From NCBI RefSeq assembly GCF_035083965.1, contig NC_089731.1, positions 10,142,001-10,206,000 on the forward strand: a DNA stretch of 64,000 bases, in the 5' to 3' direction. Shown in pieces: positions 15,919-49,509 of this stretch. The notes below the pieces were generated by a model, which did not search any database, was not told the DNA's origin, and was given only the letters and a program-made list of their open reading frames with translations. Each line of letters starts with the position of its first letter. The stretch's first letter is position 1. This stretch comes from Branchiostoma lanceolatum. Lineage: Eukaryota > Chordata > Leptocardii > Amphioxiformes > Branchiostomatidae. A program made the translations under genes and the position numbers.

Positions 15919-15940
15919 ACATAGCTCGCCTTGACCTTAA

Positions 15941-16439
15941 AGGCAACCAGAACATTTTATGAGGCTTGAAAACTGGAAATATTATAGTTACTGTAATCTT
16001 TGTGAAATCGACATTTAATGCCACTGTTTACCACATTTGCGTGATAATTTCATATCAAAAGTGTCCAAAAGCGGCACAAAAACAGTCTACATGGTGATCT
16101 TTTAGTTTCACGCGCCTATTGTAAATACTGTAGACACCAAAGCCCCGCCCACCTCCGTCAAAACGTAGAAATGCAAAATTAAAACATAAAAATGCAAATA
16201 TTTGACGGACATGTAGTCATCCTCTCATTGGTCGAACCGCTAATTGTGATGGACAGTCAGGGTCAGTCTACTAGGGCTTGGATTTTCTATCAGCTCTCAC
16301 CACAAAACGACATCGTATTTTTGCTCCTTTAATATCGATATGTAATGGTATGGTGTTATTGAAACTTATTATGTGTAGGAATGTCTAGAAATTGGAGTTT
16401 TTCAATTCAAGTTTCAAGCCTCAGAAAATGCTCTGGATG
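15941..16439. mobile_element. TTAA-type MITE, copy 1
   Basis: Begins AGGCAACCAGAAC right after TTAA and ends CTCTGGATG. The inverted ends pair over about 30 bp (AACATTTTATGAGGCTTGAA with TTTCAAGCCTCAGAAAATG). Unit B has the empty site CCTTGACCTTAAGGTCAG at about 24994-25011. The last three bases and the right TTAA copy are lost here. TTAA targeting suggests piggyBac-like mobilisation, but no transposase is present. Confidence 0.8.
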
Positions 16440-16639
16440 TCAGCTGTATAACCGGCAAGGGGCCAGCGTGCCCAGGCTGCATTTTCAAATGTTTCCCCGT
16501 AAAGGATAATTTCCAAGCAAATGTCGGGGTGGCTGAAACGTAGCGATTTAGTCTCTCCCTACATCTACTTGAATATTACGCCAAGGAAACATTATTAGTC
16601 GTCGCACATGGACCTGCTCGCCCGTCTGGGGATCATGAA

Positions 16640-16780
16640 TTAGTAATGCGGTATTTTGGTGCATGCGTATTGGTAGCCGAAAAGATGGCGGGCGGACCGC
16701 ATCATTTCACTGACGCTTACTTTCGCTTGCCCTTTTACAGCTGTAGCGTTTCACCAACATCCTAAACCCGCTGCTTCTAG
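16640..16780 (+). promoter_or_regulatory. Pannexin A promoter and 5' UTR exon
   Basis: AAAGATGGCGGGCGG (from 16681) matches the YY1 core often found at animal start sites. A probable non-coding first exon ends CTGCTTCTAG at 16780 before GTAAGAAT. The next acceptor, TTTCCAG, precedes 18185, 53 bp before the ATG. The same arrangement is conserved in unit B. Confidence 0.6.
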
Positions 16781-17058
16781 GTAAGAATATCATGCCATCA
16801 TCCTACCGTGTTGTCTAGTATATCTTCAAGAAATTGAAGTTTCCCTCTTTTCTGCGAATCGGAATTTCATTTGAGCACTATTCTCATTTATATACGGCAT
16901 ATTGGTACTCGTGCATAACGGCTTGACCAGTTGTACCAAATAGTTAAAAGAATGTACAAAAGTATATATTGTGACAAAGATATGCAGGAAGTGTTGTAGG
17001 TCTTTGTTTTGGTAGACATGGGACGGTTTGAAAGCTAGATAGGTAGTACGATTTTTAT

Positions 17059-17789
17059 AGCCCCATATTCAGGCTTTACTGCGGCCTTTTTATCTAATGA
17101 TGAGGTGACGAATTCTTGAATTTCGACCATGTTCTGATGAGTGATGGTTTCAGTTACCCTGATATATTGCCGATGTTGATGCAAATTGTAACCATCAGAA
17201 CACAATAGCAACCAGAAAACAGTGCGCCCGTAGAAGAGCCTGCTTCCAAGTTTAGATTTTCCACGTGTCAGGTCTAGAACCACGCGCATATAATTGCTTG
17301 ATGTCTGTATACACGTGGGTTTATGAATAGATCATACCTCAGTCCTATCCTGTCTCTATTTTCAGTTTCAGTTTTTGTTGGATTTTTTTTACCTATTATG
17401 TGCTTTCTTTTTGATGCACAATACAACTGACCTGCCATATGATTTCTCTTGGCCACCCGCAAAGTGTTCTCTTGGCAAACTAAAAATAGAGACAGGATAG
17501 GACTGAGGTCTGATGTAATTATAAACCCACGTGTATACAGACAGCAAACAATTGTATGCATCACCTGTGTGTGGTACAAGATCTGACACGTGGAAAATCT
17601 AACCTCGGAAGCAGGCTCTTCCACGGGCTCGTTGTTTTCAGGTTGCTGCCTAGTTCTGGTGGTTACACTTTGCACCAACATTGACAATATCAGGGAAAAC
17701 TTAAGCCATCAAAAGGCGGTTGAAATCTATGAATTTGTCACTCGTCATTAGAAAAAAAAGGGCCGTGGCAAAAGCCTGAATTGTGGGCT
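17059..17789. repeat. Long inverted repeat (~300-bp arms) upstream of pannexin A
   Basis: The left arm (17059 to about 17362) and right arm (about 17482-17789) are imperfect reverse complements over nearly their whole length. Shared blocks are TGTATACACGTGGGTTTAT, CAGTCCTATCCTGTCTCTAT, GAAGAGCCTGCTTCC and GATTTTCCACGTGTCAG. The loop is about 120 bp and no coding frame is credible. Unit B lacks it: its sequence diverges right after GGTAGTAC. It is probably a foldback-type element, and the family is unknown. Confidence 0.8.
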
Positions 17790-18184
17790 GCAAAAAATCG
17801 TCTTTAGAGGTATTTTCCGGCGTAGGACGCTCGGCGATGGCTAATTTTACGTGCGATTTACCTGCGATTTACCTGCGATTGACCTTGGTACACTAAAAAA
17901 ACATCGTACGATGTACCTACGTTATATGTGACCACCACTTTGTATGTGTTAACTATTGCACCCGGCTTTTCCCAAACGTACGACGTACGGCGCTGTCATG
18001 ACGGAAGAAACGCCATCGTAGGTACGACGTGAGTTTAGTGTGACCGGGGCTTTATTTGCAGTGGGTGAGTGGCCTGCGGGTAGCTTTACAGCGATTCTCC
18101 TTAAACACGATAGGACCAAGATAGTCCTGTTCGGGTGTTCCATAGAAACGTCATCTCTTCCCTCTATTCTTTCGTGATTTCCAG
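17790..18184. other. Intron sequence with a probable MITE remnant
   Basis: Contains repeated GCGATTTACCT motifs, palindromic CGTACGACGTACG-type stretches and a right end GTGTGACCGGGGCT that looks like a transposon terminus. No matching left end could be fixed. The intron acceptor TTTCCAG ends at 18184. Confidence 0.35.
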
Positions 18185-18237
18185 GGCGAACGCAGTGTTT
18201 CGAAGAATAACGAACTCCATCGTGAAGCCAGCGCAAC

Positions 18238-21200
18238 ATGACGTTCGCTATCAATGCCGTCGACGCCATCTTGAGCGACACTCTGTCGGCCCCAGGCAAG
18301 AGAAAGCCTTCTGTCACCGGACACAACATCGACACCGAGCTGCCGTTCGACAAGATGGTGAAGTGCGTCACTGTGGGCGTGCCTCTCTTTCTTATGTCGC
18401 TGTACTTCGCCAAGGAATTTGCTACAGGTAAGGCTGTGTAATCCGATAATGCTAGGGTCACAGTTCCAAACCAGGGCTCGGTCGGGTTATTTGCTGGGAA
18501 ACGAAAAATAAAATTGTATATTGAAAAATACAATATACACAAATAATTCTCAAGACTATATTTCTTTCGTTTTGCGTGTTTTGCTGTCTTTTGCAGCATG
18601 CCTTTCGCTTCAAAAACCTGCCCGGCCGGGCCCCGATTTGGAAACGTGACCCTAGCATCACTCATGATATGAATTATGTACAGGGCCAACGGGAAATAAA
18701 ATCCCACCGCTGCCACCAGTGTAACGCAGGAAAAAATGCTCGGTGCAAGATCCTTGAAAATGTCTCGAAACCAAGTGATGAGAAGCATTTCATACCTCCT
18801 AGGTGTGTCTTAGCTTTTTTCCTCGTGGATCAGCAAATTGCGGCAAGCATTCATGGCATACCATGCGCTTTGTAAATCACCAACATCTTCAGCTATAGCT
18901 CCAAATTAATGACTGAAACTTTCTTCTCCCGACAGACAGCTCGAACCACATATCGTGCTTCCCCCCGTTACATTTTGGCTGGGCACAGAGCGCCGTCATC
19001 TCTGCGTACTGTTGGGGCGAACTACGCGACGCTAACGTCGTTGTTGGCACAGGTAATATCTTAGTTTCCGTATAGTAATTGGGTTATCTTCTTTCTGCTG
19101 GTTCCAGAGGACTCATTGATAGCATGCTTCCCACCTCAGGACTTTGGGTCGGCACATGGGAAGTACCTAAATGTCTACTGCTGGACAGAGTTGAAATTTT
19201 CTAGGATCGCGTCGGGCCAGGCTAATACCACAGGTAGGGCGGCTGTGTCACATCTTCTCGTACCCCGTAGCTATAGTTTATAACTTCCCTTCTGAAATGT
19301 TGCAGATCTAGAGAAAACTTCTTTTAACAGGTTTTGAAACCATTTCAATATCATGATGTTTGACTTGTGATCCAGAAGAACGTAAGCACGTAAAACATCT
19401 TTGTTTCAAATTCTCTCCTAGCTAGTTTTGAACCTGGGTCACCTACCATGAAAATTTAGATGCTTAAAAATGCGATGTCCCTAACTAACCACTATATTGC
19501 ACTGGAATGCTTTTTGGCTCGATCGCTAAATTTTTTGTACCCTTAATGGTTGCGCGCATGCACGTGGATGTCTAAATCAAACCATTAAAGGCAACCAGAG
19601 CATTTTATGAGGCTTAAAAACTGGAAATATTATAGTTACTGTAATCTTTGTGAAATCAACATTTAATGCCACTGTTTACCACATTTGCGTGATAATTTCA
19701 TATCAAAAGTGTCCAAAAGCGGCACAAAAACAGTCTACATGGTGATCTTTTAGTTTCACGCGCCTACTGTAAATACTGTAGACACCATAACCCCGCCCAC
19801 CTCCGTCAGAACGTAGAAATGCAAAATTGAAACATAAAAATGCAAATATTTGACGAACATGTAGTCACCCTCTCATTGGTCGAACCGCTAATTGTGATGG
19901 ACAGTCAGGGTCAGTCTACTAGGGCTTGGATTTTCTATCAGCTCTCACCACAAAACGACATCGTATTTTTGCTCCTTTAATATCGATATGTAATGGTATG
20001 GTGTTATTATGTTTCGTTGGCGAAACATATTGTTTTTGTCAGGTTTCTTCTTCTCCTTCTCCTTCTTCTCCTGTCAAATCTTCAAATCGCTTCTTCTCGG
20101 TCGTCCGTCGACCAAATTAGCTGAAATTTGGTATGGAGGTAGAGTACGTGTATACCCCTAGACCTTTTTAAAATTTTTTTGATATAAGTTTTTAAAATGA
20201 TTTTATCGAGGTTTTTTGGTCATTTTCTGACAAAAGTCGCACATTATGGCCTCCAGTGCCGTGGTGTTGAAACCTAAGGACCTGAAATTTGGTTTAGTTG
20301 TGCATTGGATATTTACCCAAAGGACCCCATAATTTTTTTTGGTATACACTACTTCAAAATGATTTATTTTGCAATTTTTTGATGGAATTTTTGGTTATTT
20401 TCTCACAACTAGGTCATCTTGTAACATAAGCCCTCCTACACTTCCCCTGTCTGGGAGTTAAAACCAAGTAGATGTCAGGGGGTACCTCTACTAATGGTAT
20501 TACAGAAAGTTATATGTACCTTATGTTACATGGTACGGATATTATATTTGAGATGTAGGTACCTATAGGAAAGGTGAATACACCTGACAATTAATTATGC
20601 TAATGAGGACCTAATTTACATAATGGATGCATAAAGTTGTATGTCCCTTACCGTAAAAGCTGCGGATGTCATCTTTGAGATGTAGGTACCTTTAGGAAAG
20701 GCGAACACACCTGGCCATAAATTATGCTAATGAGGACCTAATTTGCATAATCAGTGCATAAAGTTGTATGTCCCTTACCGTAAAAGCTGCGGATGTCATC
20801 TTTGAGATGTAGGTACCTTTAGGAAAGGCGAACACACCTGGCCATAAATTATGCTAATGAGGACCTCATTTGCATGATTTATGCGAAAACTTGTAATTCC
20901 CTTACCGGAAAAGCTGCAGATGTCAGATTTGAGATGTACGTACCGTTAGCAAAGGTGATCACACCTGGCCATGAATTATGCTAATGAGGACCTCATTTGC
21001 ATAATTCATGCATAAACTTGTATTTCCCTTACCGTGAAAGCTGCAGATGTCATATTTGAGATGTAGATAGCTTTAGGAAAGGTGCACACGCCTGGCCATG
21101 ACATATGCTAATGAGGACCTCAATTGCATAATTTATGCATGATGTTGTATTCCCCTTACTGTAAAAGCTGCGGATGTCATCTTGAACATGTAGGTACATG

Positions 21201-23795
21201 TAGGAAAGGTGAAAGCACCTGGACATAACTTATGCTCATGAGGACCTTATTTGCATAAATTATGCAGAAACTTGGATTTGCCCAGGACTTATTTTGGGAC
21301 AGCCCATTTCTTGCATGAGGAGTATGGGCGAAACATCCTGACTTTGCTCTTAAAGCAAATGACGGCCAGTCTAGTTGAAACTTATTATGTGTAGGAATGT
21401 CTAGAAATTGGAGTTTTTCAATTCAAGTTTCAAGCCTCAGAAAATGCTCTGGATGCCTTTAAAAAGAAACACGGACGACCTATAACTTCGTCATTTCTGA
21501 ACACTATGAACTATTTCACTAAACTTGTGTATTTTCATCAACGTACTTTGCTTCATGTTCCATAGATGGAGCAAAGGTGATAACACAGCCGATGTCGCTC
21601 TTCCAACACAAAATCTTTCCCTACATCCTCCTGTGCATCGGAGCCATGATGTACCTGCCTGTTGTCTTCTGGAACGTTACGGCTGTACCTCCTTTACAGG
21701 TACAGATGAGATGAGATGTAGTATATCTCTGGTGTCGTCGAAGAGTACATGGAGGAAAATACAATGCCATAGATGATTCAAACGACGAGCATTTGAATCA
21801 AAGCCCCTAAGCCTTACTTCAGTTTCCCTCAAAGATCTTATATCCCCGACTAAGATCATTCACAGTAGCCTATTCCCTCAGCAACGATGACATTGGTTAA
21901 TCTATCTCCTCCCGTCCCCACCAGGCTGAGATGAGTGTGATCCTGACAGAGTTTGACAACACGTTCAGCAGAGCTGTCCAGCTGGCGTGTGAGATCCTGG
22001 GCAAACGTGATCCAGGCGACCTGAGAATGACACGGACAGAGTTCGACTCAGAGATGGCGAAGGTAGGACGAACTTTACCTAGAACTCTTTTCCTTTTCAA
22101 ATAGAGATCTTGCAAGAGTAGCGAAATATGTTGTTTATTAATAGGATTAAGATTGGGCACGTAGCTCATTTTGCGTTTGTGGTATCAAGGACCTGCCAAT
22201 ATTCAGCATGACGATTGAAGTGCATTTTTTTCATTTCAATCTCTGTCCAGGACATGCCAGATAGTGACTCATGTACATGTCTCTGTGGTACGTGTATTTT
22301 AGTTTGCCATTGCTTCTCTGTATCTCTTCCTTTGAACCGACGGTGCACGATTTATCTATTGTTCATCTGTAGGTGAAGACTGAGATGCCGTACGCCTTCC
22401 TGCTGTTTGAGAACTACCTCCTGTATAAGGTCAGGATAAACCAGCTCATCAGGCTGTACCTCATCAGGCAGATCCTGGTGCTGCTGGGGATCGCCTGCAC
22501 CATCGGTGGGTTTTCTTCTCTTCTTTTTGTCGAATAAGTACTGTCAACTAGACTCTCCTGTTTGTTTGTTTGTTTGTTTGTTTGTTTGTTTGTTTGTTTG
22601 TTGGAGCCTTTATCTATTCATGAATAACTCAAATCGATCTGAGGTCATGATCATGAGGGAATTGAGGTCATGAGGGAATTATAAGACAAAATTACAACAC
22701 AGATACAGGTAACAAAACATTCATGGTACTTCAAAAACACAGAACAAAGAGAATGTTCACGTATGACGGAACTTTGGATGAACGTATTAGAAATCAATTA
22801 CGTACTGTAGCTAACTGTACCATGCATGGACGTTTAAAATGGAAAAACGCAAAAGAGCACTGCTTATATTTCGGAAGGTTTTGACGCATCTCCAAGACGC
22901 AATATGCATGGGGCAGTTGGAAAGAGGCTGACGCAAAATTCTGCATGACAGCAACAACTAGTTACGTTAAAAGGGTTGTTAGTATTTTGTCTGTCTCTTA
23001 ATCCTGAGTCCTATATCAATTTCAGCGTATCTGTCGTACTTCTACTTTGAGGACCTCCCGGACGAGTTTTCCTGCAACATCCGTTCCGGAGAGCTGCTGG
23101 TCATGGAGAACATCCCAAAAGCCGTCAACTGTAAACTACCAGGCGTCGCCATGTTCCGGATCGCATGCGTCATCAACATCGCCTTCTACATTCTCATCGC
23201 TCTGCTCATCTTCGTCTACATCATCATAAAATATGTAGGCAAGAAAAGGGACAACGTGAAGATCTTCCGCATGCTCCCGTTCGTGTGTGTGGAAACGGAC
23301 GCGCTGGTTCCCAAAAGCTGGTTCAGCGACATCAACCTGCTGTCGGTGTTCCTGGTGAGTAACGTGACCGAAGTCAAGTCGTACTACCGCCTGTCCGAAA
23401 TAAGATGTCTGAAACACGCCATGGAGGACGACCAGGCTAAGGAAAACGAGGCCAAGCTGGAAGGAGTCATCACCGGTGATAACACGTCCCCTGGTGGCAT
23501 ATTGAACAAACTTCTTAAGGAAGATGAAGAAGTCAGCCCTCAAGAGGTGACTGTCGGTGATCTTGTCAACCTGATTGGAGAGGTGTCTTCAACGGCTGCG
23601 GCAGTCTCTCTGCCTCAATTTGGGTCCATTCTAGGACCAGGCCAAGCAGGGAGCAGTCAAGCAGGGAGCGGACAAGCAGGGAGCGGACAAGCAGGGAGCG
23701 GACAAGCACGAAAGCGGACGGGACAAGGGCAAGACAGCTTCAAGACAGGCACATCATCAGAAGGGGAGATGCAAGATTCCTGGCCATTTTTCTGA
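18238..23795 (+). CDS. Pannexin/innexin-family channel, copy A
   Basis: Exons: 18238-18427, then 2a 18936-19052 or 2b 19108-19233, 21566-21699, 21925-22062, 22373-22505, 23026-23795. The product is 493 residues with 2a or 496 with 2b. Family: large-pore channels of two-loop, four-TM topology. Visible: TM1 in FDKMVKCVTVGVPLFLMSLY; loop 1 with CFPP and YCW cysteines 18 residues apart; TM2 in FPYILLCIGAMMYLPVVFW; TM3 near LVLLGIACTIAYLSYFYF; loop 2 with FSCNIRSG and VNCKLPG; TM4 in VINIAFYILIALLIFVYIII; then NVTEVKSYYRL, similar to the vertebrate pannexin-1 ENISEVKSYKCL block. The cytoplasmic tail has GQAGS repeats. Loop 2 has no NxS/T sequon. Whether the protein forms gap junctions or single-membrane channels is not decided by sequence and may depend on the chosen loop-1 exon. 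Exons match copy B except for a small number of replacements. Confidence 0.9.
18936..19233 (+). other. Pannexin A alternative loop-1 exons 2a and 2b
   Basis: 2a (18936-19052, 117 nt) and 2b (19108-19233, 126 nt) both join phase-1 junctions and both encode the first extracellular loop. 2a: SSNHISCFPP and AYCWGELRDANVVVGT. 2b: DSLIACFPP and VYCWTELKFSRIASGQANTT. Both keep the two loop cysteines exactly 18 residues apart and the YCW-EL motif, but are otherwise largely different. 2b ends with an NTT glycosylation sequon; 2a and its junctions have none. The intron between them is 55 nt (19053-19107). Including both would insert two loops, and including neither would delete the loop. Mutually exclusive splicing is inferred. 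Confidence 0.88.
19420..19512 (-). repeat. Possible old tRNA-derived SINE remnant
   Basis: Contains TTGAACCTGGGTCACC and CTAACCACTATATTGCACTGG, which read in reverse like the B-box and A-box parts of a tRNA-derived SINE. The same remnant is in unit B near 28340-28425, so it predates the duplication. Borders are not visible. Confidence 0.3.
19589..21458. mobile_element. TTAA-type MITE copy 2, split by a nested insertion
   Basis: Starts AGGCAACCAGAGC after TTAA (19585-19588) and ends CTCTGGATGCCT before TTAA (21459-21462). Unit B shows the empty site AAACCATTAAAAAGAAAC (about 28675-28692), proving a TTAA duplication and precise borders. Without the nested segment at 20007-21374 the element is about 500 bp and nearly identical to copy 1. 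It lies in the pannexin A intron after exon 2b. Confidence 0.88.
20007..21374. mobile_element. Nested element with ~127-bp tandem repeats, Helitron/Helentron-like
   Basis: Inserted into the TTAA element between GGTGTTA and TTGAAAC (compare the uninterrupted copy 1). The left end holds the small hairpin GTTTCGTTGGCGAAAC and the right end holds GGGCGAAACAT and finishes in CTAG. About six tandem units of about 127 bp (AGATGTAGGTACC recurs near 20550, 20678, 20805, 20932, 21059 and 21186) fill the right half; each contains TTATGCTAATGAGGACCT. No coding sequence. Insertion at TT without a clear longer target duplication and the internal minisatellite fit non-autonomous Helentrons, but the class is not certain. 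Confidence 0.6.
22560..22603 (+). repeat. (TTTG)n microsatellite
   Basis: About eleven TTTG units in the last intron of pannexin A. Unit B has only about two units at the matching place. Confidence 0.95.
23638..23712 (+). repeat. Coding 15-bp minisatellite in pannexin A tail (GQAGS repeats)
   Basis: Four complete and one partial copies of GGACAAGCAGGGAGC keep the frame and encode GQAGS. Pannexin B (30823-30867) has two complete and one partial copies, so the tail length changed after duplication. Confidence 0.9.
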
Positions 23796-24388
23796 TAATG
23801 ATGGGAAACAATAGTTGCAACTATTAACTGCAAAACACAACAATGAAAACTGATAACAGCATTGATGCACAAGTAAGATTCTATAACAAAACATCACACA
23901 AAGAAATCAGAGGAGCAACTAAGGCTAAATCAGGAATAGAGCAAACCATTAATACATGTACAAGAATTTCCACAAAATCGCCCGTCATTCTATAATCATA
24001 CTTTCAGGGCAATGGACTCAGACTAGAACAGCTCTATACTTTCAGGGATTAATTAGACTGCAGTGCATTAGGCTAAGTCATGCTCTATGCACACTGTTGT
24101 CTGTTTATGTTGTGTTTGTGTCTCAGTTTACAAATGCACAGAGACTTTATCAGGTACTTATCACTCATTTCCTGTCCATTCTAGCTTCTGGTACTGTGAA
24201 AGATATTCTTGGAAGTGATTTTGGTGTAATATTTGACTATGCAAATGTTCCGTTGCTTAATGTCAAACTTTCTAATCCTCCCATCACCTTGTTTCCTACT
24301 CATTCAGATATATTTTTGTATTAAAGCACTCTATTATTATGCTTATATAGTTACACATATTACCTGATCCGAATCTGCCACAAAGACA
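23796..24388. other. 3' flank of pannexin A
   Basis: Non-coding sequence homologous to the 3' flank in unit B (30946 to about 31580). It likely contains the 3' UTR. Short open frames here are not conserved in unit B and are not reported as genes. Confidence 0.6.
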
Positions 24389-24553
24389 TCAAGCCTCCCA
24401 CATCTGCATGTGTCTGTAGAGGTCAAAGGTCATGTGAGGGGGTGTGGTCTGTAAATTGGCTGTGAGGGGAGGGATGTGCGTGGTGCTGTAGTCAGCTGAC
24501 TCAAACACAAGGTCGTCTGTGAAGAAGTCCATGATATCTGGCTCTTCTTGGAC
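24389..24553 (-). pseudogene. PPP1R35: Orphan copy of the last PPP1R35 exon
   Basis: A 165-bp minus-strand block matches the final PPP1R35 exon (32334-32498) over its full length, from the acceptor TTTTCAG-type site to the stop. It stays open, ending DLYRHMQMWEA where the full gene ends DLYRHMQMWEG. No other PPP1R35 exon lies beside it; upstream homology stops after about 145 bp of intron. It is a by-product of the segmental duplication and cannot make PPP1R35 by itself. Confidence 0.88.
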
Positions 24554-24698
24554 CTGAAAACAAACATACCAGTATAGGCACGCATTGACAAGTACAGCAA
24601 GTTAAAAGACAAAAAGTAAATAAAATATGAACAGCAAGTTTCACTTGTTTCTTTTATTTTTTGCCAAATAATGAAAAATGGGGAGAAAGTTTAAACAT

Positions 24699-24987: not shown

Positions 24988-25199
24988 AGTTCGCCTTGAC
25001 CTTAAGGTCAGCTGTAAGCCGGCAAGGGGCCAGCGTGCCCAGGCTGCGGCATTTTCAACTGTTTCCTCGAAAAGGATAATTTCCAAGCAAATGTCGGGGT
25101 GGCTAAAACGAAGCGATTTAGTCTCTACCTACATCTACTTGGAGATTACGCCAAGGAAACATTATTAGTCATGGCACATAGACCTGCTCGCCCGTCTGG

Positions 25200-25351
25200 G
25201 GATCATGAATTAGTAATGCGGTATTTTGGTGCATGCGTATTGGTAACCGAAAAGATGGCGGGCGGACCGCATCATTTCACTGACGCCCTACTTTCGCTTG
25301 CCCTTTTACAGCTGTAGCGTTTCACCAACATCCTAAACCCGCTGCTTTTAG
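25200..25351 (+). promoter_or_regulatory. Pannexin B promoter and 5' UTR exon
   Basis: The same AAAAGATGGCGGGCGG YY1-like element (near 25250) and probable 5' UTR exon as in unit A. The donor follows position 25351 (GTAAGGAT). The coding exon acceptor TTTCCAG precedes 27092. Confidence 0.6.
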
Positions 25352-25629
25352 GTAAGGATACCCTGTCAACATCCTACCGTTTTGTCTAGTATATCTACTA
25401 GAAATGGAAGTTTCCCACTTTTCTGCGAATTGGAATTTCATTTGAGCACTATTTTCTCATCGATTTATATACGGCTGATTGGTACTCGTGCATAACGGCT
25501 TGGCCAGTTGTACCAAATAGTAGTCAGAATTTACAAAAGTATATATTGTGACAAAGATATGCAGGAAGTGTTGTAGGTCTTTGTTTGGGCACAGAAGGGA
25601 AGGTTTGAAAGCTAGATAGGTAGTACTTT

Positions 25630-26965
25630 CAAATTCTACCTACGGTACCTTCTTTATAGTCGAATTCCGAAAGCCCTACGTCAGTGAGCTTAACAAAGCG
25701 TATTGCGTCACCATCCCTGTCAGCCGTTTGTATCAAATTTACATTGGCCTAGTTTGCCAGGAATAAATAACACAAGGGATGCAGACACCCTGGTCATTAT
25801 TGTTATTTGTTGAAGCCATCCCCCGACAGACTTCTGTCAACAAAACGTCATATATATTATTAGGCGAGGCAAGCGTAAAGCGACGGGACGTCCGACCGGC
25901 AGGTCTCGTTCGGTTTCACAGTACATGTATTATCATCTCTAACCACTCTAACGTTACGTAGTTTTTCCAATGTCATTATCAGGCTTTACAAACCTTTTTG
26001 TTTTTTCTAGGCTTGTTCCCCACGTCCCGATCATGTCATGACCATGCACTAGTAGTAGGACTTTGTCGTCCCAAGGGATTTACAGTGTGCATTTTATCAT
26101 TCGGCTGGTAAGATAGCAGCGTCAACCGATATTCCCAGAGAGACGGAAGACTGACGTAACGGGCTATTCCACTTAGAGTTGTATGAGGGAGGGACCAAAC
26201 TTTTTCCAGCTTCTCCAGCTTCGTGTTAGAGTCCATCCATCTATGATTTCATGGATGCTACGTAGTATACCCCTCACAATTGCAATGCTCGATCCCACCC
26301 GAACGCTGTCCATTATCAACTGTCAATATGTCTGACAGCTTCTCCGCTGAGGAATTGGGTCAGGCTGTACTTAGAATTCGCTCTTATTTTTGTGGGTGGA
26401 GCGGAAAAACACAGATGCTATAGCATACATTTATATATATAATCCACCCAGAAACAATCTTATCCCATTCAATCCCCGTAAAAACCAGGTCAGTGACCTC
26501 TTGTAGATAGAAATAATCAATGAAGTTAAACCTAACACATGCTTTACGTATACGTTAGACCATTATTTTTTGTCTCCGATATTTCATTGCATTTCGATAT
26601 GTTCAAGACTGAGCAGGATAGCTGGCTAATAAAAAAGGCCCTCAATTACAACTATTTATATTAGTGATCATATTCATCGTTTTATTGTTTTGTAAGAATG
26701 GTGTATGCCCTGGATATGATCGAGTACCCCTCTGAAGTTGAACGTATCCTATGCATCTGTTATTCCTTCAACTCTGAAATATGATTGGCTTTATAATATC
26801 TGACAAAGACTACTTCATAACTTATTAAATCAAGAAGTCCTTGCCAAATATTATCAATCACTCTTACTTTGTTACTATTCATCCTTCTGTGCCAGAAAAT
26901 TAAATGATCAGTTCATAATCAGATTATTCCGATTGCAGAACTCGAACTTCATGAATGGTAACCTT
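25630..26965. other. Unit-B-specific 5' intron sequence
   Basis: About 1.3 kb with no counterpart in unit A, where the long inverted repeat and a MITE remnant occupy the matching place. No gene, transposon end or RNA gene recognised. Confidence 0.5.
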
Positions 26966-27144
26966 ATTTGCAGTGGCCTGCGGGTAGTTTTACAGCGAAT
27001 CTCCTTTTGTAACACGATAGGACCAAGATAGTCCAGTTCGGGTGTTCCATAGGAACGTCATCTTTTCCTTCTATTCTTTCGGGATTTCCAGGGCGAACGC
27101 AGTGTTTCGAAGAATAACGAACTCCAACGTGAAGCCAAAGCAAC

Positions 27145-30100
27145 ATGGCGTTCGCCATCAATGCCGTGGACTCCATCTTGAGCGACACTCTGTCGGCCCC
27201 AGGCAAGAGGAAGCCTTCTGCCACCGGACACAACATCGACACCGAGCTGCCGTTCGACAAGATGGTGAAGTGCGTCACTGTGGGCGTGCCTCTCTTTCTT
27301 ATGTCGCTGTACTTCGCCAAGGAATTTGCCACAGGTAAGGCTTTATGAACCGGTAATTCTAGGGTACGGGTCACATTGGTCGGACTGTTTGCTGGGAAAC
27401 GATATACAAAATTGTATATTAAGAAATATACACAAATTATTCTCAAGTTTATTTCTTTACGTTTTGTGTGTTTTGCTGCCTTTTGCATCACATGCCTTTC
27501 GCTTCAAAAACCTGCCCGGCCGTGCCCCGGTTTGGGAACGTGACCCTAGTATCACTTATCATATGAATTATGCATAGGGCCAACAGGGAATAAAATTCCC
27601 ACCGCTACCATCAGTGTAACGCAGAAAAGACTTGCTTGGTGTAGGATCCTTGAGAATGTCTCGGAACCAACTGATGAGAAGCATTTTATACCTCCTTGGT
27701 GTGCCTTAGCTTCTTTTTTTTTTCCTCGTGGATCAGCAAATTGCGGCAAGCATTCATGGCATACCATGCGCTTTGTAAATCACCAACATCTTCAGCTAGC
27801 TCAAAATTAATGACTGAAACTTTCTTCTCCCGACAGCCAGCTCGAACCACATATCGTGCTTCCCCCCGTTACATTTTGGCTGGGCACAGAGCGCCGTCAT
27901 CTCTGCGTACTGTTGGGGCGAACTACGCGACGCTAACGTCGTTGTTGGCACAGGTAATATCTTAGTTTCCGTATAGTAATTGGGTTATCTTCTTTCTACT
28001 GGTTCCAGAGGACTCAGTGATAGCATGCTTCCCACCTCAGGACTTTGGGTCGGCACATGGGAAGTACCTAAATGTCTACTGCTGGACAGAGTTGAAATTT
28101 TCTAGGATCGCGTCGGGCTGGGCTAATACCACAGGTAGGGCAATGCCACAGGTAGGGCGGCTGTGTCACATCTACGTAACCCGTAGCTATAGGTTATAAC
28201 TTCCCTTCTGAAATGTTTCAGATCTAGAGAAAACTACTTTTACCAGGTTTTGAAACCATTTTAATATCATGATGTTTGACTTGTGATCCAGAAGAACGTA
28301 AGCACGTAAAACACCTTTGTTTCAAAATTTCTCCTTGCTAGTTTTGAACCTGGGTCACCTACCATGAAAATTTAAATGCTTAAAAATGCGATGTCCCTAA
28401 CTAACCACTATTGCACTGGAATGCTTTTTGGTAATCTCCAAGCAGATCCACACGGGGCGCGAAAATCGTAAATGCTAGCCAGAGAAGGTCCAGTCAGCCA
28501 GAGAAGCTCCACCTTCGGGGCCGACTGGAGCTTCTCTGGCTGACTGGACCTTCTCTGGCTAGCATTTACGATTTTCGCGCCCCGTGTGGATCTGCTTGGA
28601 GATTAGCTTTTTGGCTCGATCGCTACATTTTCTGTACCCTTAATGGTTGCGCGCATGCGCGTGGATGTCTAAATCAAACCATTAAAAAGAAACACGGACG
28701 AGCTATAACTTCGTAATGTCTGAACACTATTAACTATTTCACTAAACTTGTGTTCATTCATCAACGTACTTTGCTTCATGTTCCATAGATGGAGAAAAGG
28801 TGATAACACAGCCGATGTCGCTCTTCCAACACAAGATCTTCCCCTACATCCTTCTGTGCATCGGAGCCATGATGTACCTGCCTGTTGTCTTCTGGAACGT
28901 TACGGCTGTACCTACTTTACAGGTACAGATGAGATGTAGTATATCTGTCGTGTCGTCCAAGAGTAAACAGAGGAAAATACAATGCCAGAGGTGTGATTCA
29001 AACGACGGGCATTTGAAACATAGCCCCTAAGCCTTACTTCAGTTTCCCTCAAAGATCCCCGACTAAGATCATTCACAGTAGCCTATACCCTCAGCAACGA
29101 TGACATTGGTTAATCTATCCCCCCCCCCCCCGTCCCCACCAGGCTGAGATGAGTGTGATCCTGACAGAATTTGACAACACGTTCAGCAGAGCTGTCCAGC
29201 TGGCGTGTGAGATCCTGGGCAAACGTGATCCAGGCGACCTGAGTATGACACGGACAGAGTTCGACTCAGAGATGGCGAAGGTAGGACGGACTTTACCTAG
29301 AACTCTTTTCCTTTTCAAATAGAGATCTTTCAAAAGTGGCGAAATATGGTGTTTCCCAATAAGATAAAAATTGGGTACGTAGCTTACTTTGCGCCTGTAG
29401 TATCAAGGACCTGCCAATATTCAGCATGGCGATTGAAGTGCATATTTTCGTTTCAATCTGTCCAGAACATGCATGCCAGATATAGTGCTAGTGATGATGT
29501 CTCAGTGGTACATGTATTTCAGTTAACCACTATTCTCATGTATGTCTTCCTTTGAACTGACGGTGCATGACATATGTATCTATTGTTCATCTGTAGGTGA
29601 AGACTGAGAAGCCGTACGCCTTCCTGTTGTTTGAGAACTACCTCCTGTGTAAGGTCAGGAAAAACCAGCTCATCAGGCTGTACCTCATCAGGCAGATCCT
29701 GGTGCTGCTGGGGATCGCTTGCACCATCGGTTGGTTTTCTTTTCTTATTTTGTCGAATAGGTACTGTGCACCAGACTCTCCTTTTTGTTTGTTTCATGGG
29801 GTCATGAGGTAAGGTTAAGACAAAATTGTAACACAGATACAGGTTACCTGATTGAAGTCCGAATAAATCTATAACATATAGTCCTTATAAATCCATGAAC
29901 ATGTATCCTTACATATACACGGTAATTCAAAAACACTAACCAAAAGCAAGTTTACGTACGGCGGAACTTTGGATGAACGTATTAGAAATCAATTACTGTG
30001 GCTAACTGTACCATGCATGGACGTTTAAAATGGAAAAACGGAAAAGAGCACTACTGATATTTCGGAAGGTTTTGACGCATCTCCAAGACACAATATGCAT

Positions 30101-30945
30101 GGGGCTGACACAAACTTGTGCATGACAGCAGCATCTATAGCTAGTTACTTTAAAAGGAATGTTAGTATTTTGTCTGTCTCTTAATCCTGAATCCTATATC
30201 AATTCCAGCGTATCTTTTGTTCTTCTACTTCGAGAACCTCCCAGACGAGTTTTCCTGCAACATCCGTTCTGGAGAGCTGCTGGTCATGGAGAACATCCCA
30301 AAAGCCGTCAACTGTAAACTACCAGGCGTCGCCATGTTCCGGATCGCATGCGTCATCAACGTCGCCTTCTACATTCTCATCGCTCTGCTCATCTTCGTCT
30401 ACATCATCATAAAATATGTAGGCAAGAAAAGGGACAACGTGAAGATCTTCCGCATGCTCCCGTTCGTGTGTGTGGAAAAGGACGCGCTGGTTCCCAAAAG
30501 CTGGTTTAGTGATATCAACCTCCTGTCGGTGTACCTGGCGAGTAACGTGACCGAAGTCAAGTCGTACTACCGCCTGTCCGAAATCAGATGTCTGAAACAC
30601 GCCATGGAGGACGACCAGGCGAAGGAAAACGAGGCCAAGCTGGAAGGAGTCATCACCGGTGACAAGACGTCCCTTGATGGCAAATTGGACAAACTTTTTA
30701 AGGAAGATGAAGAAGTCAGCCCTCAAGACGTGACTGTCGGAGATCTTGTCAACCTGATTGGAGAGGTGTCTTCAACGGCCACGGCAGTCTCTCTGCCTCG
30801 ATTTGGGTCCATTCTAAGACGTGGCCAAGCAGGGAGCGGACAAGCAGGGAGCGGACAAGCACGAAAGCGGGTGGGACAAGGGCAAGACAGCTTCAAGACA
30901 GGCACATCGCCAGAAGGGAAGATGCAAGATTCCGGGCCATTGTAG
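27145..30945 (+). CDS. Pannexin/innexin-family channel, copy B
   Basis: Exons: 27145-27334, then 2a 27837-27953 or 2b 28009-28134, 28789-28922, 29143-29280, 29597-29729, 30209-30945. The product is 482 residues with 2a or 485 with 2b. Same topology, cysteines and junction phases as copy A. Differences include MAFAINAVDS instead of MTFAINAVDA, FFYFENLPDEF instead of YFYFEDLPDEF, and a shorter GQAGS tail. All frames are open, so both copies look functional. The exon 5 donor is GTTGGT, weaker than GTGGGT in copy A. The neighbourhood (PPP1R35 immediately downstream, convergent) suggests this copy sits at the ancestral right-hand border. Confidence 0.9.
27837..28134 (+). other. Pannexin B alternative loop-1 exons 2a and 2b
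   Basis: 2a is 27837-27953 and 2b is 28009-28134, again 117 and 126 nt with a 55-nt intron (27954-28008). 2a begins ASSNHISCFPP; 2b contains ASGWANTT, keeping the sequon. A 17-bp tandem duplication just after 2b gives a second donor (GTAGGG at 28152) whose use would shift the frame. Confidence 0.88.
28432..28605. mobile_element. 174-bp near-perfect foldback element with 9-bp target duplication
   Basis: Two arms of about 80 bp are almost exact reverse complements (ends TAATCTCCAAGCAGATCC and GGATCTGCTTGGAGATTA) around a loop of about 14 bp. Flanked by GCTTTTTGG on both sides (28423-28431 and 28606-28614). Unit A has the empty site GGAATGCTTTTTGGCTCG near 19505. A 9-bp duplication points to a Mutator-like mobiliser. 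It lies in the pannexin B intron after exon 2b. Confidence 0.92.
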
Positions 30946-32333
30946 TCGTCGACTTTTCTGCTAATGATGGGAAACAATAGTTGCAACTATTAACTGCAAA
31001 ACACAACAGTGAAAACTGATAACAGCATTGATGCACAAGTAATAAACTGTAACAAAACATCACACAAAGAATCAGGAGCAACTAAGGCTAAATCAGGAAT
31101 AAAGCAAACCGCTAATATAATACATGTACAAGAATTTCCACAAAATCCCGTCATGCTATAATCATACTTTCAGGGCAATGGACTCAGACTAAAACAGCTC
31201 TATACTTTCAGGGATTGATTAGACTCAAGTGCATTACTATTTAGGCTAAGACCCATGCTCTATGCACACTGTTGTCTTTTTATGTTGTGTTGGTGTGAAA
31301 CATAAGAGCATGTATCAGTTTACAAATGCACAGAGACTTTTCCTTAAAGTAAGGCACACTGATAACTTATTTCCTGTCCTTTCCAGCTTCTCGTATTGTG
31401 AAAGATCTTCTTGGAAGTGATTTTTGGTGTAATATTTGACTATGCAAATGTTCCATTTCTTAATGTCATCAAAGTATGTAAAACTTTCTAATTATTGTAT
31501 TATGTTTCCTACTCATTCAGTGGTATCTTTATAAGTACTCTATATCATGCTTCTGTAGTTACACATATTACCTGATTTGAATTAGTATAACAATACTAGT
31601 AGTAATAGAAAGCAAGGGGAAATGTTAAAAATAAAATGCACTGAATCGTAGAAGTAAAAAATTATTTGTTTATGTTAACAACCTCCAAGATACTTTGATA
31701 CGAACTCCACTTAGCATACATGCTATCAGAGTACATGTTATATTGTACCTTATAACACACATTCACCATAATGCTGGACGGACTGCCAGTACATTATACA
31801 ACTGTATTCAATCATATGTGGCCACAGCATACTACCACCTCTGAAAATGTACATTTGTACTCTCAAAGTTGCTTCTTTTGATGTAAAATAAAGCAAACAG
31901 AAATAAATGTTCCAATCATGTACTCGCCTAATAAATGCACAGGCTGATGAATTGAAGGTAGATGGACCATTTATAAGTAGGTTCCCCATTAAGAAAATTG
32001 GATCCAGCAAACTTTACTCAGGCTGGGTTCTTAATCAAATTAATGTGGGAACAGGCAATTTCTGCCTGTCAGAAACAGTACCAACATCAATACATCTCTG
32101 TAACTGAGAAGTGATAAATAAAACTACAAGTTATACCACAGATTCAATTCTAGTAACAGTTTATAACTGTGACAGAAAAACACATAATATAAGTGGTATC
32201 ATATACTATATATGTACATGCCAGAAGATAGAAGTGAAAGATTAATTACTCATCTCATACCGTTTTTAGTTCATTTCATATCGGTGTATCGAACAAAATC
32301 ATAAAGAGGTAGAGCGAATCTGCCACAAAGACA
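30946..32333. other. 3' flank of pannexin B and unit-B-specific sequence
   Basis: The first about 630 bp match unit A's 3' flank. About 31581-32317 is absent from unit A, whose sequence jumps from CCTGAT to CGAATCTGCCACAAAG. It is either an insertion here or a deletion there; no element ends recognised. No gene seen. Confidence 0.55.
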
Positions 32334-34153
32334 TCAACCCTCCCACATCTGCATGTGCCTGTAGAGGTCAAAGGTCATGTGAGGGGGTGCGGTCTGCAGA
32401 CTGGCTGTGACAGGAGGGATGTGGGTGGTGCTGTAGTCAGCTGACTCAAACACAAGGTCGTCTGTGAAGAAGTCCATGATATCTGGCTCTTCTTGGACCT
32501 GAAAACAAATACCAGCATAGGCATGTATTGACAAGTACAGCAAGTTAAAAGACAAAAAGTAAATAAAACATAAACAACAAGTTTCACTTGTTTCTTTTTT
32601 TGCCAAATAATGAAAAATGGGGAGAAAGTTTAAACATTTATAAAGATGGTCTACCATTAATTTGATTAAAAGTTCTTATAAGTTATAACAGACTAGGCAG
32701 GACAACACATGTAGTACTTTTGATTAACCAAAACATAGAAATCATAATATACCTGAGGTTTCTCATGTCTGACATCTTTCACCATGGATAATTTTTCTTC
32801 CACTGCTGCTTCCAGTACCCTTTGTACTGGTACATCTAGACTCACCAGGCCTGGAGTGATGGTAAAATTAAAATATGCCTTTTGTAAGATGGACAAGTAC
32901 AACATATAATATCTCAAAACACACTGTTAATACTGTGCTGATGGCTTCCTCAACTGTGTCTTGTAGCAGGGCTGTTGATCACAATATACATGTATATTCA
33001 CAACAATATCAACTTCTATTCAGCACACATGCTAGAAAGCCTGTCCAATGAAAAGAGCAGTATTATATATGGGGACATTCCTACTGTAAAACATCAGTGA
33101 TCTTATTCTTATGATGATTGTCTCTATACTTCACAAACACAAACAAGACAGGCTCAACAAAGGAGCTCACCTCTATACTTCTGTTCAGCAGGTGCAACGT
33201 TTACCCCCTCCGCACTTTTCTCAGACACCTTTTCTTGCGCCTGTTCCGATGTCTTCAGCTTCTCCAGGGCAGCTGCTTTGGCATCAAATTCACCAAATTT
33301 CAATTTCTGAGGGCAGCAAGAAGGTATTTTGTACATAAAGATGTCTTTAAAAAATCAAGTTAAATGCAGTTACCTTTCTGTAAGTGTAAACTAATAGTAC
33401 ATTATCAACATACTTTACTTATGATTTTCACATAATCATACTATTCACAGGTTGGTTCTATAGATAACTTATGTGTATACTAGTAGATATATCAGATAAC
33501 ATATTGAGGAAAAAGCAAACCATGCACTAGTAATACAATGTATCTTAGATGCTCCAATTCAAACAAAAACTTACCTGAAGTTCCTTTCCCAATGCTAATG
33601 TAGTGTTGAACTCTGGTCTGGCCAGCACACATTCCTCTGGTGCATCTGTCCCTGTCACATATCTGTCCTGTACAGTTTTCCTGTGTCTGCTCACTTGTAC
33701 CTTTGGTTGAGCACTCTTTGTAACTCTGGTCCGGTGAAATGTCACCTCAGAGTCTTCTTCACTTTGATCTGACCCTTCACTAACACTATCAGTTACATCA
33801 AATCTGACCCTCCTCAGTCCTGGCATGTGTCTTTCTACTCTGGGTTCCTTGACAATGTAAGGATACGACTTTGGTCGTACTGATACAATGTCTTTCAACT
33901 TTATGTCTTTTTTCTCTGGTGTGACTAAAAGATCTGGATCTGCTAGGTTAATTTCAGGTTTTGGAATCGGAGCAGGGACATTGTGAGTAGGTATGATGTC
34001 TGCTTCTTGAACTTGAACTTTAGGTTCTGTCTGTGAGAGCAGGTGGTCCTTGGCCAGCTGGGAGACAATGCCGTGGTCCTTGGCTGATGGCAGTGGAGGT
34101 GGGAAGGACCGAGGGAGGTGCTCGTTACCATGGCAAACTATGTGTGATGCCAT
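32334..34153 (-). CDS. PPP1R35: Protein phosphatase 1 regulatory subunit 35
   Basis: Minus-strand exons: 34153-33575 (coding part), 33306-33171, 32850-32753, 32498-32334; 325 residues. The start ATG is the first in an exon that begins at 34183 behind a 5' UTR intron. The PP1-docking RVxF-type motif is visible as LRRVRFDVTDS. The C-terminal half matches the vertebrate family: LALGKELQ, FDAKAAALEKL, EKSAEGVNVAP, GLVSLDVPVQRVLEAAVEEK, then a tail ending MQMWEG like human LRRWEA. Known role: a centrosomal protein needed for centriole-to-centrosome conversion and elongation that also binds PP1. The N-terminal half is disordered and acidic. It shares its upstream region head-to-head with SDHB. Confidence 0.9.
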
Positions 34154-48340: not shown

Positions 48341-49509
48341 ATGGATATTGAAAATGCCGATCAGTACGCGAAGAACCGGGAGGGACAACAGAAGGTAGCG
48401 GTGGATCTGATAAACAGGTAGGATGGAATTGTTTTGATGTTCATGATACTAGCGAGCAACATCTTTTAAAATCAATCAATGAAAAGACATACAATGACAC
48501 TTTGCCACAGAAATTTGACATTGCGTTGCTGCATGCAAGTAGACCAACACCGTGACATCGGTCACAAATAAGAAATTTGAACTGCGCTAGACTTCTGTCT
48601 GCTAACTACACGTACGCTTTCTCCCAGGTACATAACGTGGCAGGAGGGTGACGTGGTGCTAGATGTTGGCTGTGGGACTGGAGAGATCACCAAACTCATG
48701 TCTCAGCAGCCGGGAGTCAAGTCTGTCGTGGGGATCGATTTGTCCTCAGACTTCATCAGGTATCATTGATGTTATCAAGTTGAGTTTCACATGATGTGTC
48801 GAGTTTGATACGAGCCCCCGATTGTCCAGAAAGCCAGAAAGTAAGACATTGATTAGCTATCGCTGTATTAGAAGCACAAAGATGGTCTAGCCGCCCGTCC
48901 CAGACATTTCTTTTTCTCATGTTAATTTTTGTTTGCAGTTTCGCATCAGAGAACAACGCTGGTGCGAACATCAGTTTCCACGCGGCCGACGCCTCCGACC
49001 CCGCCCACTTCAAACCTGAGTGGAAAGGTGCGTTCACCAAGGCCACCTGCTTCACGGTTCTGCACTGGATCCAAGACAAGAAAAGCGCCTTTAAGAACAT
49101 TTCCTCATGTCTTGAGTCTGGAGGGGAGCTGGTGATCAACTGTCTATTGGAGTCAGCGGCTCAAATAGGCCAGTTGGATCTGCCGAAGTGGAGGGAGTAC
49201 CTTAAAGATTTCACCTACAGCATCTACCCGTGGCCTAATGACGACATCGACGGAATGGGTCGGCTATTGGAGGAGGCAGGATTTGAAGTTCTGACGTGTA
49301 ACGGACAACCGGCCCCGCCCAAGTCTTTCCCGACCGATCCGGAGGGTTTGAAAGCTGTCATGCGCACAATGTTGCCCCAGCTCAAGTACATACCGGCCGA
49401 CGAACAAGACGACTACCTGACGGATGCCTACTGCGCAATCGCAGAAATGAGGAAGAACTTTAAGGAAGGTGATCCCGAAGCTGTTGTTGCGCATGTGCGC
49501 AAAGTGTGA
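48341..49509 (+). CDS. JHAMT-like SAM-dependent methyltransferase
   Basis: Exons 48341-48417, 48628-48759, 48939-49509; 259 residues. The start ATG lies six bases after the acceptor TTCCTAG. The Rossmann-type SAM site is VLDVGCGTGEITKLM with the acidic partner VVGIDLSSDF. Later family features are FTKATCFTVLHWIQDKKSAF (LHW motif), LESGGELVINCLLES and a C-terminal helical region. Length and order match insect juvenile hormone acid / farnesoic acid O-methyltransferases, which methylate a terpenoid carboxylate. A lancelet enzyme need not share that substrate, so only a small-molecule carboxyl methyltransferase is inferred. No signal peptide, so cytosolic. It stands alone, not in a visible cluster. 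Confidence 0.85.

What the first reader, a model, noticed from the sequence alone, without database searches (positions are those of the whole stretch)
18936..19233. Pannexin A: mutually exclusive first-loop exons that toggle an N-glycosylation site
Seen: two adjacent exons with the same phase on both sides each encode the whole first extracellular loop with the two cysteines 18 residues apart and the YCW-EL motif. Only 2b has the sequon NTT; 2a has none, and loop 2 of the protein has none. The intron between them is 55 nt. Known: extracellular N-glycans keep vertebrate pannexins from docking, whereas many innexins without such glycans form gap junctions. Inference: one lancelet gene could make both a glycosylated single-membrane channel and a docking-competent channel by exon choice, bridging pannexin and innexin behaviour.
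Basis: partly seen in the sequence, partly recalled or inferred. Interest (0 to 1): 0.92.

Follow-up and report, generated by a model that had tools for sequence, protein, structure and literature searches.

The report
Lancelet pannexin with swappable loop exons
A lancelet membrane-channel gene carries two alternative versions of the exon for most of its first outer loop, one with a sugar-attachment site and one without, and they also differ at the residue expected to line the pore, so one gene could make two different channels in an animal group reported to own only the sugar-tagged kind.

Summary
In Branchiostoma lanceolatum a pannexin gene has two adjacent, homologous exons with phase-1 borders (2a 18936-19052, 2b 19108-19233; 55-nt intron), each encoding most of extracellular loop 1. 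The only extracellular sequon, NTT, lies in 2b. A tandem copy of the gene (27145-30945) has the same pair. Public proteins match letter for letter: gene A with 2b is 'isoform X1', gene B with 2a is 'isoform X2'. The 4 lancelet proteins found each carry exactly one of the two exons; the sequon is kept in both from other lancelets.

The exons also differ at the position of PANX1 Trp74, the extracellular pore constriction: W in 2a, S in 2b. Putting 2a for 2b raises the PANX1 score (+17.5 bits) and lowers the innexin score (-11.7). Best reading: alternative pore-entrance modules, with the glycan toggle as a second effect.

Docking by the 2a form is untested. The finding contradicts a published claim that every chordate innexin has an extracellular glycosylation site and that lancelets have one innexin. 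The open-access searches listed no description of the exon pair. Missing: read counts, 2a in other lancelets, channel assays.

The parts
18238..18427 (+). Gene A exon 1: start codon, N-terminus, TM1; ends in phase 1
   Evidence: AG/GT model reproduces P0001 letter for letter
18936..19052 (+). Gene A exon 2a: loop-1 module without sequon, W at the PANX1 Trp74 position
   Evidence: the same exon of gene B is in P0002 'isoform X2'
19053..19107 (+). 55-nt intron between 2a and 2b; 1 difference from the gene B copy. No match to the branch-site motif yUnAy; looser UnA candidates at 4, 11, 26 and 34 nt from the 5' splice site
19108..19233 (+). Gene A exon 2b: loop-1 module with sequon NTT (N103), S at the Trp74 position
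   Evidence: in P0001 'isoform X1'
21566..21699 (+). Gene A exon 3: end of loop 1 and TM2
21925..22062 (+). Gene A exon 4: cytoplasmic loop
22373..22505 (+). Gene A exon 5: cytoplasmic loop and much of TM3
23026..23795 (+). Gene A exon 6: loop 2 (no sequon), TM4, C-terminus, stop
27145..30945 (+). Gene B, tandem copy of the whole pannexin gene with the same exon order
   Evidence: gene B with 2a = P0002 letter for letter
27837..27953 (+). Gene B exon 2a (no sequon, W at the Trp74 position); 1 nt differs from gene A
28009..28134 (+). Gene B exon 2b (NTT sequon, S at the Trp74 position); 3 nt differ from gene A

Best explanation
A tandemly duplicated pair of mutually exclusive exons supplies most of extracellular loop 1 of a lancelet pannexin. 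Choosing 2a gives a channel whose pore entrance carries an aromatic residue (W at the PANX1 Trp74 position) and that has no extracellular N-glycosylation site. Choosing 2b gives a channel with a small polar residue (S) there and a sequon in the outer part of the loop. The main effect is most likely a change of pore-entrance selectivity, gating and pharmacology; glycan-dependent trafficking or docking changes with it. Joint inclusion is most likely prevented by the 55-nt intron, which leaves little room between 5' splice site and branch point. Shown here: exon structure, homology, sequon, aligned residues, the tandem copy, and both exon choices in annotated proteins. Inferred: splicing mechanism, pore effect, glycan occupancy, docking.
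For: Exon pair and phases; 0 of 20,000 shuffles reach the 2a/2b similarity. Both forms occur in annotated proteins, letter for letter; 4 of 4 lancelet proteins found have exactly one exon. C1-to-C2 spacing is 18 in all six sequences compared (2a, 2b, PANX1, PANX2, PANX3, INX-6), so C1+8 is the Trp74/Arg89/Ile74 position: W in 2a, S in 2b. Trp74 is the PANX1 constriction and its mutation disrupts ion selectivity (PMC7108861, abstract and passages; PMC10997603 passages). Same-gene swap of 2b for 2a: PANX1 6m02 170.6 to 188.1 bits, PANX3 7xl6 185.4 to 190.9, PANX2 7xlb 156.2 to 160.9, Pfam Innexin 33.2 to 21.5; fish and frog PANX1 proteins P0005/P0006 177.3 to 194.9 and 167.8 to 179.6. The intron is 55 nt in both genes against 220-2332 nt for the ten others. 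PMC6071210 (passages) states that too short an intron between two such exons prevents joint splicing. Both exon lengths are multiples of 3, so decay of double or skipped forms could not enforce the choice.
Against: No read counts: annotated proteins show use, not frequency or tissue, and I did not see the evidence behind the annotation. The protein set is clustered at 90% identity (member counts 4, 2, 5, 4), so a double-inclusion form could be hidden. Arg75, needed with Trp74 for anion selectivity in PANX1, is Ala in both exons, so the filter analogy is incomplete. No yUnAy branch site was found in the 55-nt intron, and the minimum efficient intron length in lancelets was not tested. 2a was seen only in B. 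lanceolatum. AlphaFold models failed (mean pLDDT 36.1 and 36.5), so positions rest on sequence alignment.
Confidence: 0.68

Rival explanations
1. One reading: the toggle is chiefly about docking. The 2a form makes innexin-type gap junctions, the glycosylated 2b form stays a single-membrane channel. (Not exclusive of the pore effect.)
For: The 2a form has no extracellular sequon. From the second cysteine to the PY of TM2 are 32 residues in 2a and 36 in 2b, like INX-6 (33) and unlike PANX1/2/3 (26, 26, 27). [quoted passage not shown] that the stretch behind the second cysteine is the outer lobe is my inference. [quoted passage not shown] Lancelets lack connexins (PMC8769644 and PMC6391747 passages).
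Against: N103 is not at a vertebrate glycan position; it aligns by count with frog Panx1 residues 88-100, which are disordered, so its place at the docking face is unknown. 2a is the less innexin-like exon. [quoted passage not shown] PMC8769644 leaves open whether lancelets have gap junctions at all.
Confidence: 0.2
2. The glycan mainly governs trafficking: 2b goes to the surface, while sugar-less 2a stays inside or acts as a regulatory subunit in mixed channels.
For: Human PANX1 N255Q was found predominantly in the cytoplasm (PMC8096850 passages). A single exon choice would set the dose of glycosylated subunits.
Against: Does not explain the coordinated change at the pore position; no expression data.
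Confidence: 0.2
3. One exon is a little-used relic or noise, and the annotated isoforms reflect rare junctions.
For: Only annotated proteins were seen; 2a was seen in one species; the 2a form falls below the Pfam cut-off.
Against: 2a keeps frame, splice sites, cysteines and YCW-x-EL in both tandem genes; 0 synonymous and 1 non-synonymous difference between the copies, too few to measure constraint alone. Between 2a and 2b synonymous sites are saturated while dN is 0.45-0.55, so both stayed coding for long.
Confidence: 0.1
4. Genes A and B are two haplotypes placed in tandem by mis-assembly.
For: dS between the copies, 0.07 (exons 3-5) and 0.095 (exon 1), is not far above lancelet heterozygosity as I recall it.
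Against: A and B differ at 18 of the first 375 residues, as much as B and the B. floridae x japonicum protein (17 of 375); A differs from that protein at 27.
Confidence: 0.1

Closest known systems
Vertebrate pannexins PANX1, PANX2, PANX3
   Same: Overall sequence (E-values from 2e-42 to 5e-57 to the 31 distinct solved pannexin sequences), 18-residue cysteine spacing in loop 1, constriction position at C1+8
   Different: In vertebrates the constriction residue (W, R, I) and the glycan site are fixed per gene; here exon choice changes both. N103 is at a different position; the PANX1 N255 position holds Val in the lancelet alignment; loop 1 behind the second cysteine is 5-10 residues longer
Innexins, e.g. 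C. elegans INX-6
   Same: Pfam Innexin match of the 2b form (33.2 bits, cut-off 25), innexin-like length of loop 1 after the second cysteine
   Different: No evidence of docking; the 2a form is below the Pfam cut-off; no innexin chain was among the matches to solved structures up to E 0.001
NALCN alternative selectivity filters (exons 15 and 31)
   Same: One channel gene, alternative exons that swap selectivity-filter residues (PMC3557258, abstract)
   Different: Unrelated channel with four repeat domains, no sequon toggle (the latter from my knowledge); here the large-pore family
Slug Limax innexin 11 splice variants 11x1/11x2
   Same: Splice variants of an innexin that differ in a first-loop sequon (N85MT / N85LS; PMC8049302 passages)
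   Different: Both variants keep two loop-1 sequons; not a gain or loss of the only site
FGFR IIIb/IIIc exons
   Same: Tandemly duplicated mutually exclusive exons of chordates, studied also in amphioxus (PMC5703972 passages)
   Different: Receptor domain, not a channel

Membership tests
Innexin/pannexin family (PF00876) | Profile match above Pfam gathering score (25 bits) | tested here: inconclusive
   2b form 33.2 bits (met); 2a form 21.5 bits (not met), though the same 2a protein matches PANX3/PANX1 chains at E about 1e-55. In the database P0002 (2a) has no precomputed PF00876, P0001, P0003 and P0004 (2b) have it
Innexin/pannexin family (PF00876) | Four transmembrane segments | tested here: met
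   Hydropathy of the 2b form: 40-59, 121-147, 220-250, 276-315
Innexin/pannexin family (PF00876) | Two cysteines in each extracellular loop | tested here: met
   Loop 1 C70/C88 (2b) or C71/C89 (2a); loop 2 C257/C276 or C254/C273
Innexin/pannexin family (PF00876) | Oligomeric large-pore channel | not testable with these tools
   Monomer models failed (mean pLDDT 36)
Mutually exclusive exon pair | Adjacent homologous exons with equal phases | tested here: met
Mutually exclusive exon pair | One and only one exon per transcript | tested here: inconclusive
   4 of 4 lancelet proteins found have exactly one, but 90% clusters may hide others; no reads available
N-glycosylated chordate pannexin | At least one extracellular sequon | tested here: not met
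   Not met by the 2a form; met by the 2b form. Occupancy not testable
Gap-junction-forming innexin | Docking and cell-cell coupling | not testable with these tools
   Needs expression and dye/electrical coupling
PANX1-type filter | Trp74-Arg75 pair at the extracellular constriction | tested here: not met
   2a W-A, 2b S-A: half met in 2a only

The most novel reading that the evidence does not exclude
Chordate gap junctions made of innexin-type protein did not vanish: lancelets, which lack connexins, splice exon 2a into their pannexin to make a sugar-less, docking-competent channel, and exon 2b to make a glycosylated single-membrane channel with another pore entrance, so that one exon choice sets both docking and permeability.
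Probability: 0.2. Interest if true: 0.93.

Novelty: new variant of a known kind. Interest (0 to 1): 0.74.

Why it matters
Welzel and Schuster (PMC8769644) report not one chordate innexin without an extracellular glycosylation site and a single innexin in lancelets, and build on this a bottleneck account of why connexins arose. The 2a form is a chordate innexin homologue without such a site, and B. lanceolatum has two genes. That makes an old question directly testable: what, if anything, couples lancelet cells. It also offers natural paired channels differing only in loop 1, to test what the pore-entrance residue and the loop glycan each do in a large-pore channel.

Tried and rejected
Whole-genome search for other pannexins: no genome is held for this window. 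First exon borders were wrong in places (exon 3 of gene A; exons 5 and 6 of gene B by one base) and were corrected. In one search the rows for P0005 and P0006 show zeros because my motif finder failed; they were dropped and those proteins compared anew. AlphaFold on 6-row alignments gave unusable models (mean pLDDT 36.1 and 36.5), so no fold search was run. A third protein search restricted to loop 1 of the 2a form had 4 candidates and returned P0002 and P0001 only: no 2a exon from another species was seen, which may be absence from the database, 90% clustering or limited reach (P0003 and P0004 were not returned either). In one search the block 18936-19233 shows 22 differing columns of 315; 17 are gap columns from a short duplication at the gene B 2b donor, 5 are base changes. 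The donor scores use recalled vertebrate frequencies and carry no argument here. I rejected nonsense-mediated decay as the enforcing mechanism, since both exons are multiples of three, and U2/U12 incompatibility by eye only, against a recalled U12 consensus. PMC9013439 (tandem exon duplications) was searched for words on steric hindrance and had none; PMC10963430 had no passage on lancelet gap junctions.

My guess that the '>2 cysteines in lancelet loop 1' of PMC8769644 comes from gene models that joined 2a and 2b (four cysteines) was not checked: I may not look up its source data.

Not in print: the title lists (2 of 2 papers; 20 of 626; 20 of 201; 20 of 47; 10 of 41; 4 of 4; 1 of 1; 12 of 25) show no paper on this exon pair; I saw lists and abstract beginnings, and opened only the papers cited. 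Subscription papers are not covered. The annotated isoforms themselves are public.

Full report
What is there. The window carries a seven-exon pannexin gene (A) on the + strand: 18238-18427, 2a 18936-19052, 2b 19108-19233, 21566-21699, 21925-22062, 22373-22505, 23026-23795, with AG/GT at every internal border. Exons 2a and 2b are 117 and 126 nt, both flanked by phase-1 introns. Including either one, both or neither keeps the frame. The gene A protein with 2b equals P0001, 'pannexin-3-like isoform X1 [Branchiostoma lanceolatum]', over all 496 residues; this fixes the species and the gene model.

A second gene. A tandem copy (B) lies at 27145-30945 with the same exons, including 2a 27837-27953 and 2b 28009-28134, and again a 55-nt intron between them that differs at 1 of 55 bases. 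The gene B protein with 2a equals P0002, 'pannexin-3-like isoform X2 [Branchiostoma lanceolatum]', over all 482 residues. So each exon is used in an annotated protein. Of the 4 lancelet proteins found in three searches, 3 carry 2b (P0001, P0003, P0004), 1 carries 2a (P0002), none carries both or neither. The database is clustered at 90% identity, so further isoforms may be hidden. I did not see what evidence lies behind the annotation.

Real paralogues or haplotypes. A and B (2b forms) differ at 18 of the first 375 residues; B and the B. floridae x B. japonicum protein at 17 of 375; A and that protein at 27 of 375. Alleles should differ far less than species, so I take them as paralogues. dS between A and B is 0.095 in exon 1 and 0.07 in exons 3-5 (exon 6 not computed); the four other introns compared are 85-93% identical (the long intron after 2b was not compared as a whole). 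The stretch from 2a to 2b is less diverged: 5 base changes in 298, and 0 synonymous changes over about 54 synonymous sites. That hints at nucleotide-level constraint or gene conversion; the numbers are small.

The two exons. 2a and 2b are homologous (score 86; 0 of 20,000 shuffles reach it, maximum 50), 12 of 24 residues identical in the cysteine core. Synonymous sites between them are saturated while dN is 0.45-0.55, so the exon duplication is old and both have stayed under protein-level constraint. The 2b exon is nearly invariant between the species seen. 2a was seen only in B. lanceolatum.

The sequon. N103-T-T is wholly inside 2b and occurs in genes A and B, P0003 and P0004. The 2a forms have no extracellular N-x-S/T and no N-x-C anywhere. 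Other N-x-S/T lie at the inner end of TM2 or in the C-terminal part, and loop 2 has none. The position of PANX1 N255 holds Val in the lancelet alignment (P0005/P0006 against P0002). N103 is 15 residues behind the second cysteine, while the PANX2 and PANX3 sequons are 5 behind the first, so it is not at a vertebrate site. By count it falls in the stretch of frog Panx1, residues 88-100, that is disordered (PMC7108861 passage).

The pore position. All six loop-1 sequences compared (2a, 2b, PANX1, PANX2, PANX3, INX-6) have the two cysteines exactly 18 apart, so the core aligns without gaps. Eight residues after the first cysteine stand W74 in PANX1, R89 in PANX2, I74 in PANX3, A in INX-6, W in 2a and S in 2b (residue numbers). 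In PANX1 this residue forms the extracellular constriction; mutating it disrupts ion selectivity and changes the carbenoxolone response (PMC7108861 abstract and passages; PMC10997603 passages). Exon choice should thus exchange an aromatic for a small polar residue at the pore entrance. The neighbouring Arg75 is Ala in both exons, so PANX1-like anion selectivity is not predicted for either.

Direction of resemblance. With the rest of gene A held fixed, 2a in place of 2b raises the score to PANX1 (6m02) from 170.6 to 188.1 bits, to PANX3 (7xl6) from 185.4 to 190.9, to PANX2 (7xlb) from 156.2 to 160.9. It lowers the Pfam Innexin score from 33.2 to 21.5, below the cut-off of 25. In the 24-residue core 2b is nearer PANX2 and INX-6 (BLOSUM62 60 and 37 against 49 and 24), 2a nearer PANX1 and PANX3 (78 and 60 against 53 and 53). 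The PANX2 result therefore differs by measure: whole protein slightly for 2a, core for 2b. The sugar-less exon is the PANX1-like one.

How the choice may be enforced. The ten other introns of the two genes are 220-2332 nt; the 2a-2b intron is 55 nt in both. It has no yUnAy branch-site match; looser UnA candidates in a usable place lie 26 and 34 nt from the 5' splice site. PMC6071210 (passages) names too short an intron between two exons as a cause of mutual exclusion and notes that it applies to pairs only. Decay of double-inclusion transcripts cannot apply, as both exons are multiples of three. The minimum intron length in lancelets was not tested.

Docking. For: the 2a form has no extracellular glycan site, and from its second cysteine to the PY of TM2 are 32 residues (2b 36), innexin-like (INX-6 33), against 26, 26 and 27 in PANX1, 2 and 3. 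[quoted passage not shown] that the extra stretch is the outer lobe is my inference. Against: seven innexins with sequons are part of functional gap junctions (PMC8769644 section 4), the N255A gap-junction-like form may not be physiological (PMC9984531 passage), and PMC8769644 leaves open whether lancelets have gap junctions. I give this 0.2.

Against what is printed. PMC8769644 (abstract, section 4 part 1 and passages) states that no chordate innexin lacks an extracellular site and that lancelets have one innexin with one site. The 2a form and the tandem gene contradict both for B. lanceolatum. The words 'isoform' and 'splice' do not occur in its main text. PMC3808535 (passages) likewise reports a sole, Panx2-like lancelet sequence, in B. 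floridae. The remark of PMC8769644 on more than two cysteines in lancelet loop 1 does not fit the isoforms here (two each) but would fit a model that joined 2a and 2b (four); I could not check its source data.

Verdict. Observation confirmed and extended; interpretation partly supported. It is a new variant of a known kind: mutually exclusive exons are a known form of splicing, and NALCN offers a filter-swapping parallel (PMC3557258 abstract). A swap that changes pore-entrance residue and sole extracellular sequon together, in the chordates without connexins, appeared in none of the search lists named under Tried and rejected.

Noticed in passing
28120-28158: In gene B the donor of exon 2b is followed by a 17-nt near-duplicate, giving two successive CAG/GTAGGG donors; use of the second would add 17 nt and shift the frame.
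   Followed up: partly
16439-24698 and 25007-32637: The tandem duplication extends beyond the coding parts on both sides, in blocks of 86-94% identity, interrupted by copy-specific inserts.
   Followed up: partly
15937-16360 and 19585-20008: A 424-nt repeat, 97.6% identical, lies upstream of gene A and again inside its intron after exon 2b; perhaps a mobile-element copy.
   Followed up: no
20536-21279: 127-nt tandem repeat, 5.9 copies, in the gene A intron after exon 2b; no such array listed in gene B.
   Followed up: no
17048-17368 and 17477-17801: Inverted repeat arms of about 325 nt, 77.5% identical, upstream of gene A.
   Followed up: no
28432-28605: Palindromic element of about 175 nt (95% identical to its own reverse complement) in the gene B intron after exon 2b.
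   Followed up: no
42693-43106 (-), 48853-49506 (+), 58514-58855 (-): Open frames matching Pfam DUF5614, a methyltransferase domain and an EGF-like domain: 3 of 7 frames scanned matched; other genes of the window.
   Followed up: no
515-3217 (-): Open frame of 901 residues without a Pfam match at E 0.001.
   Followed up: no
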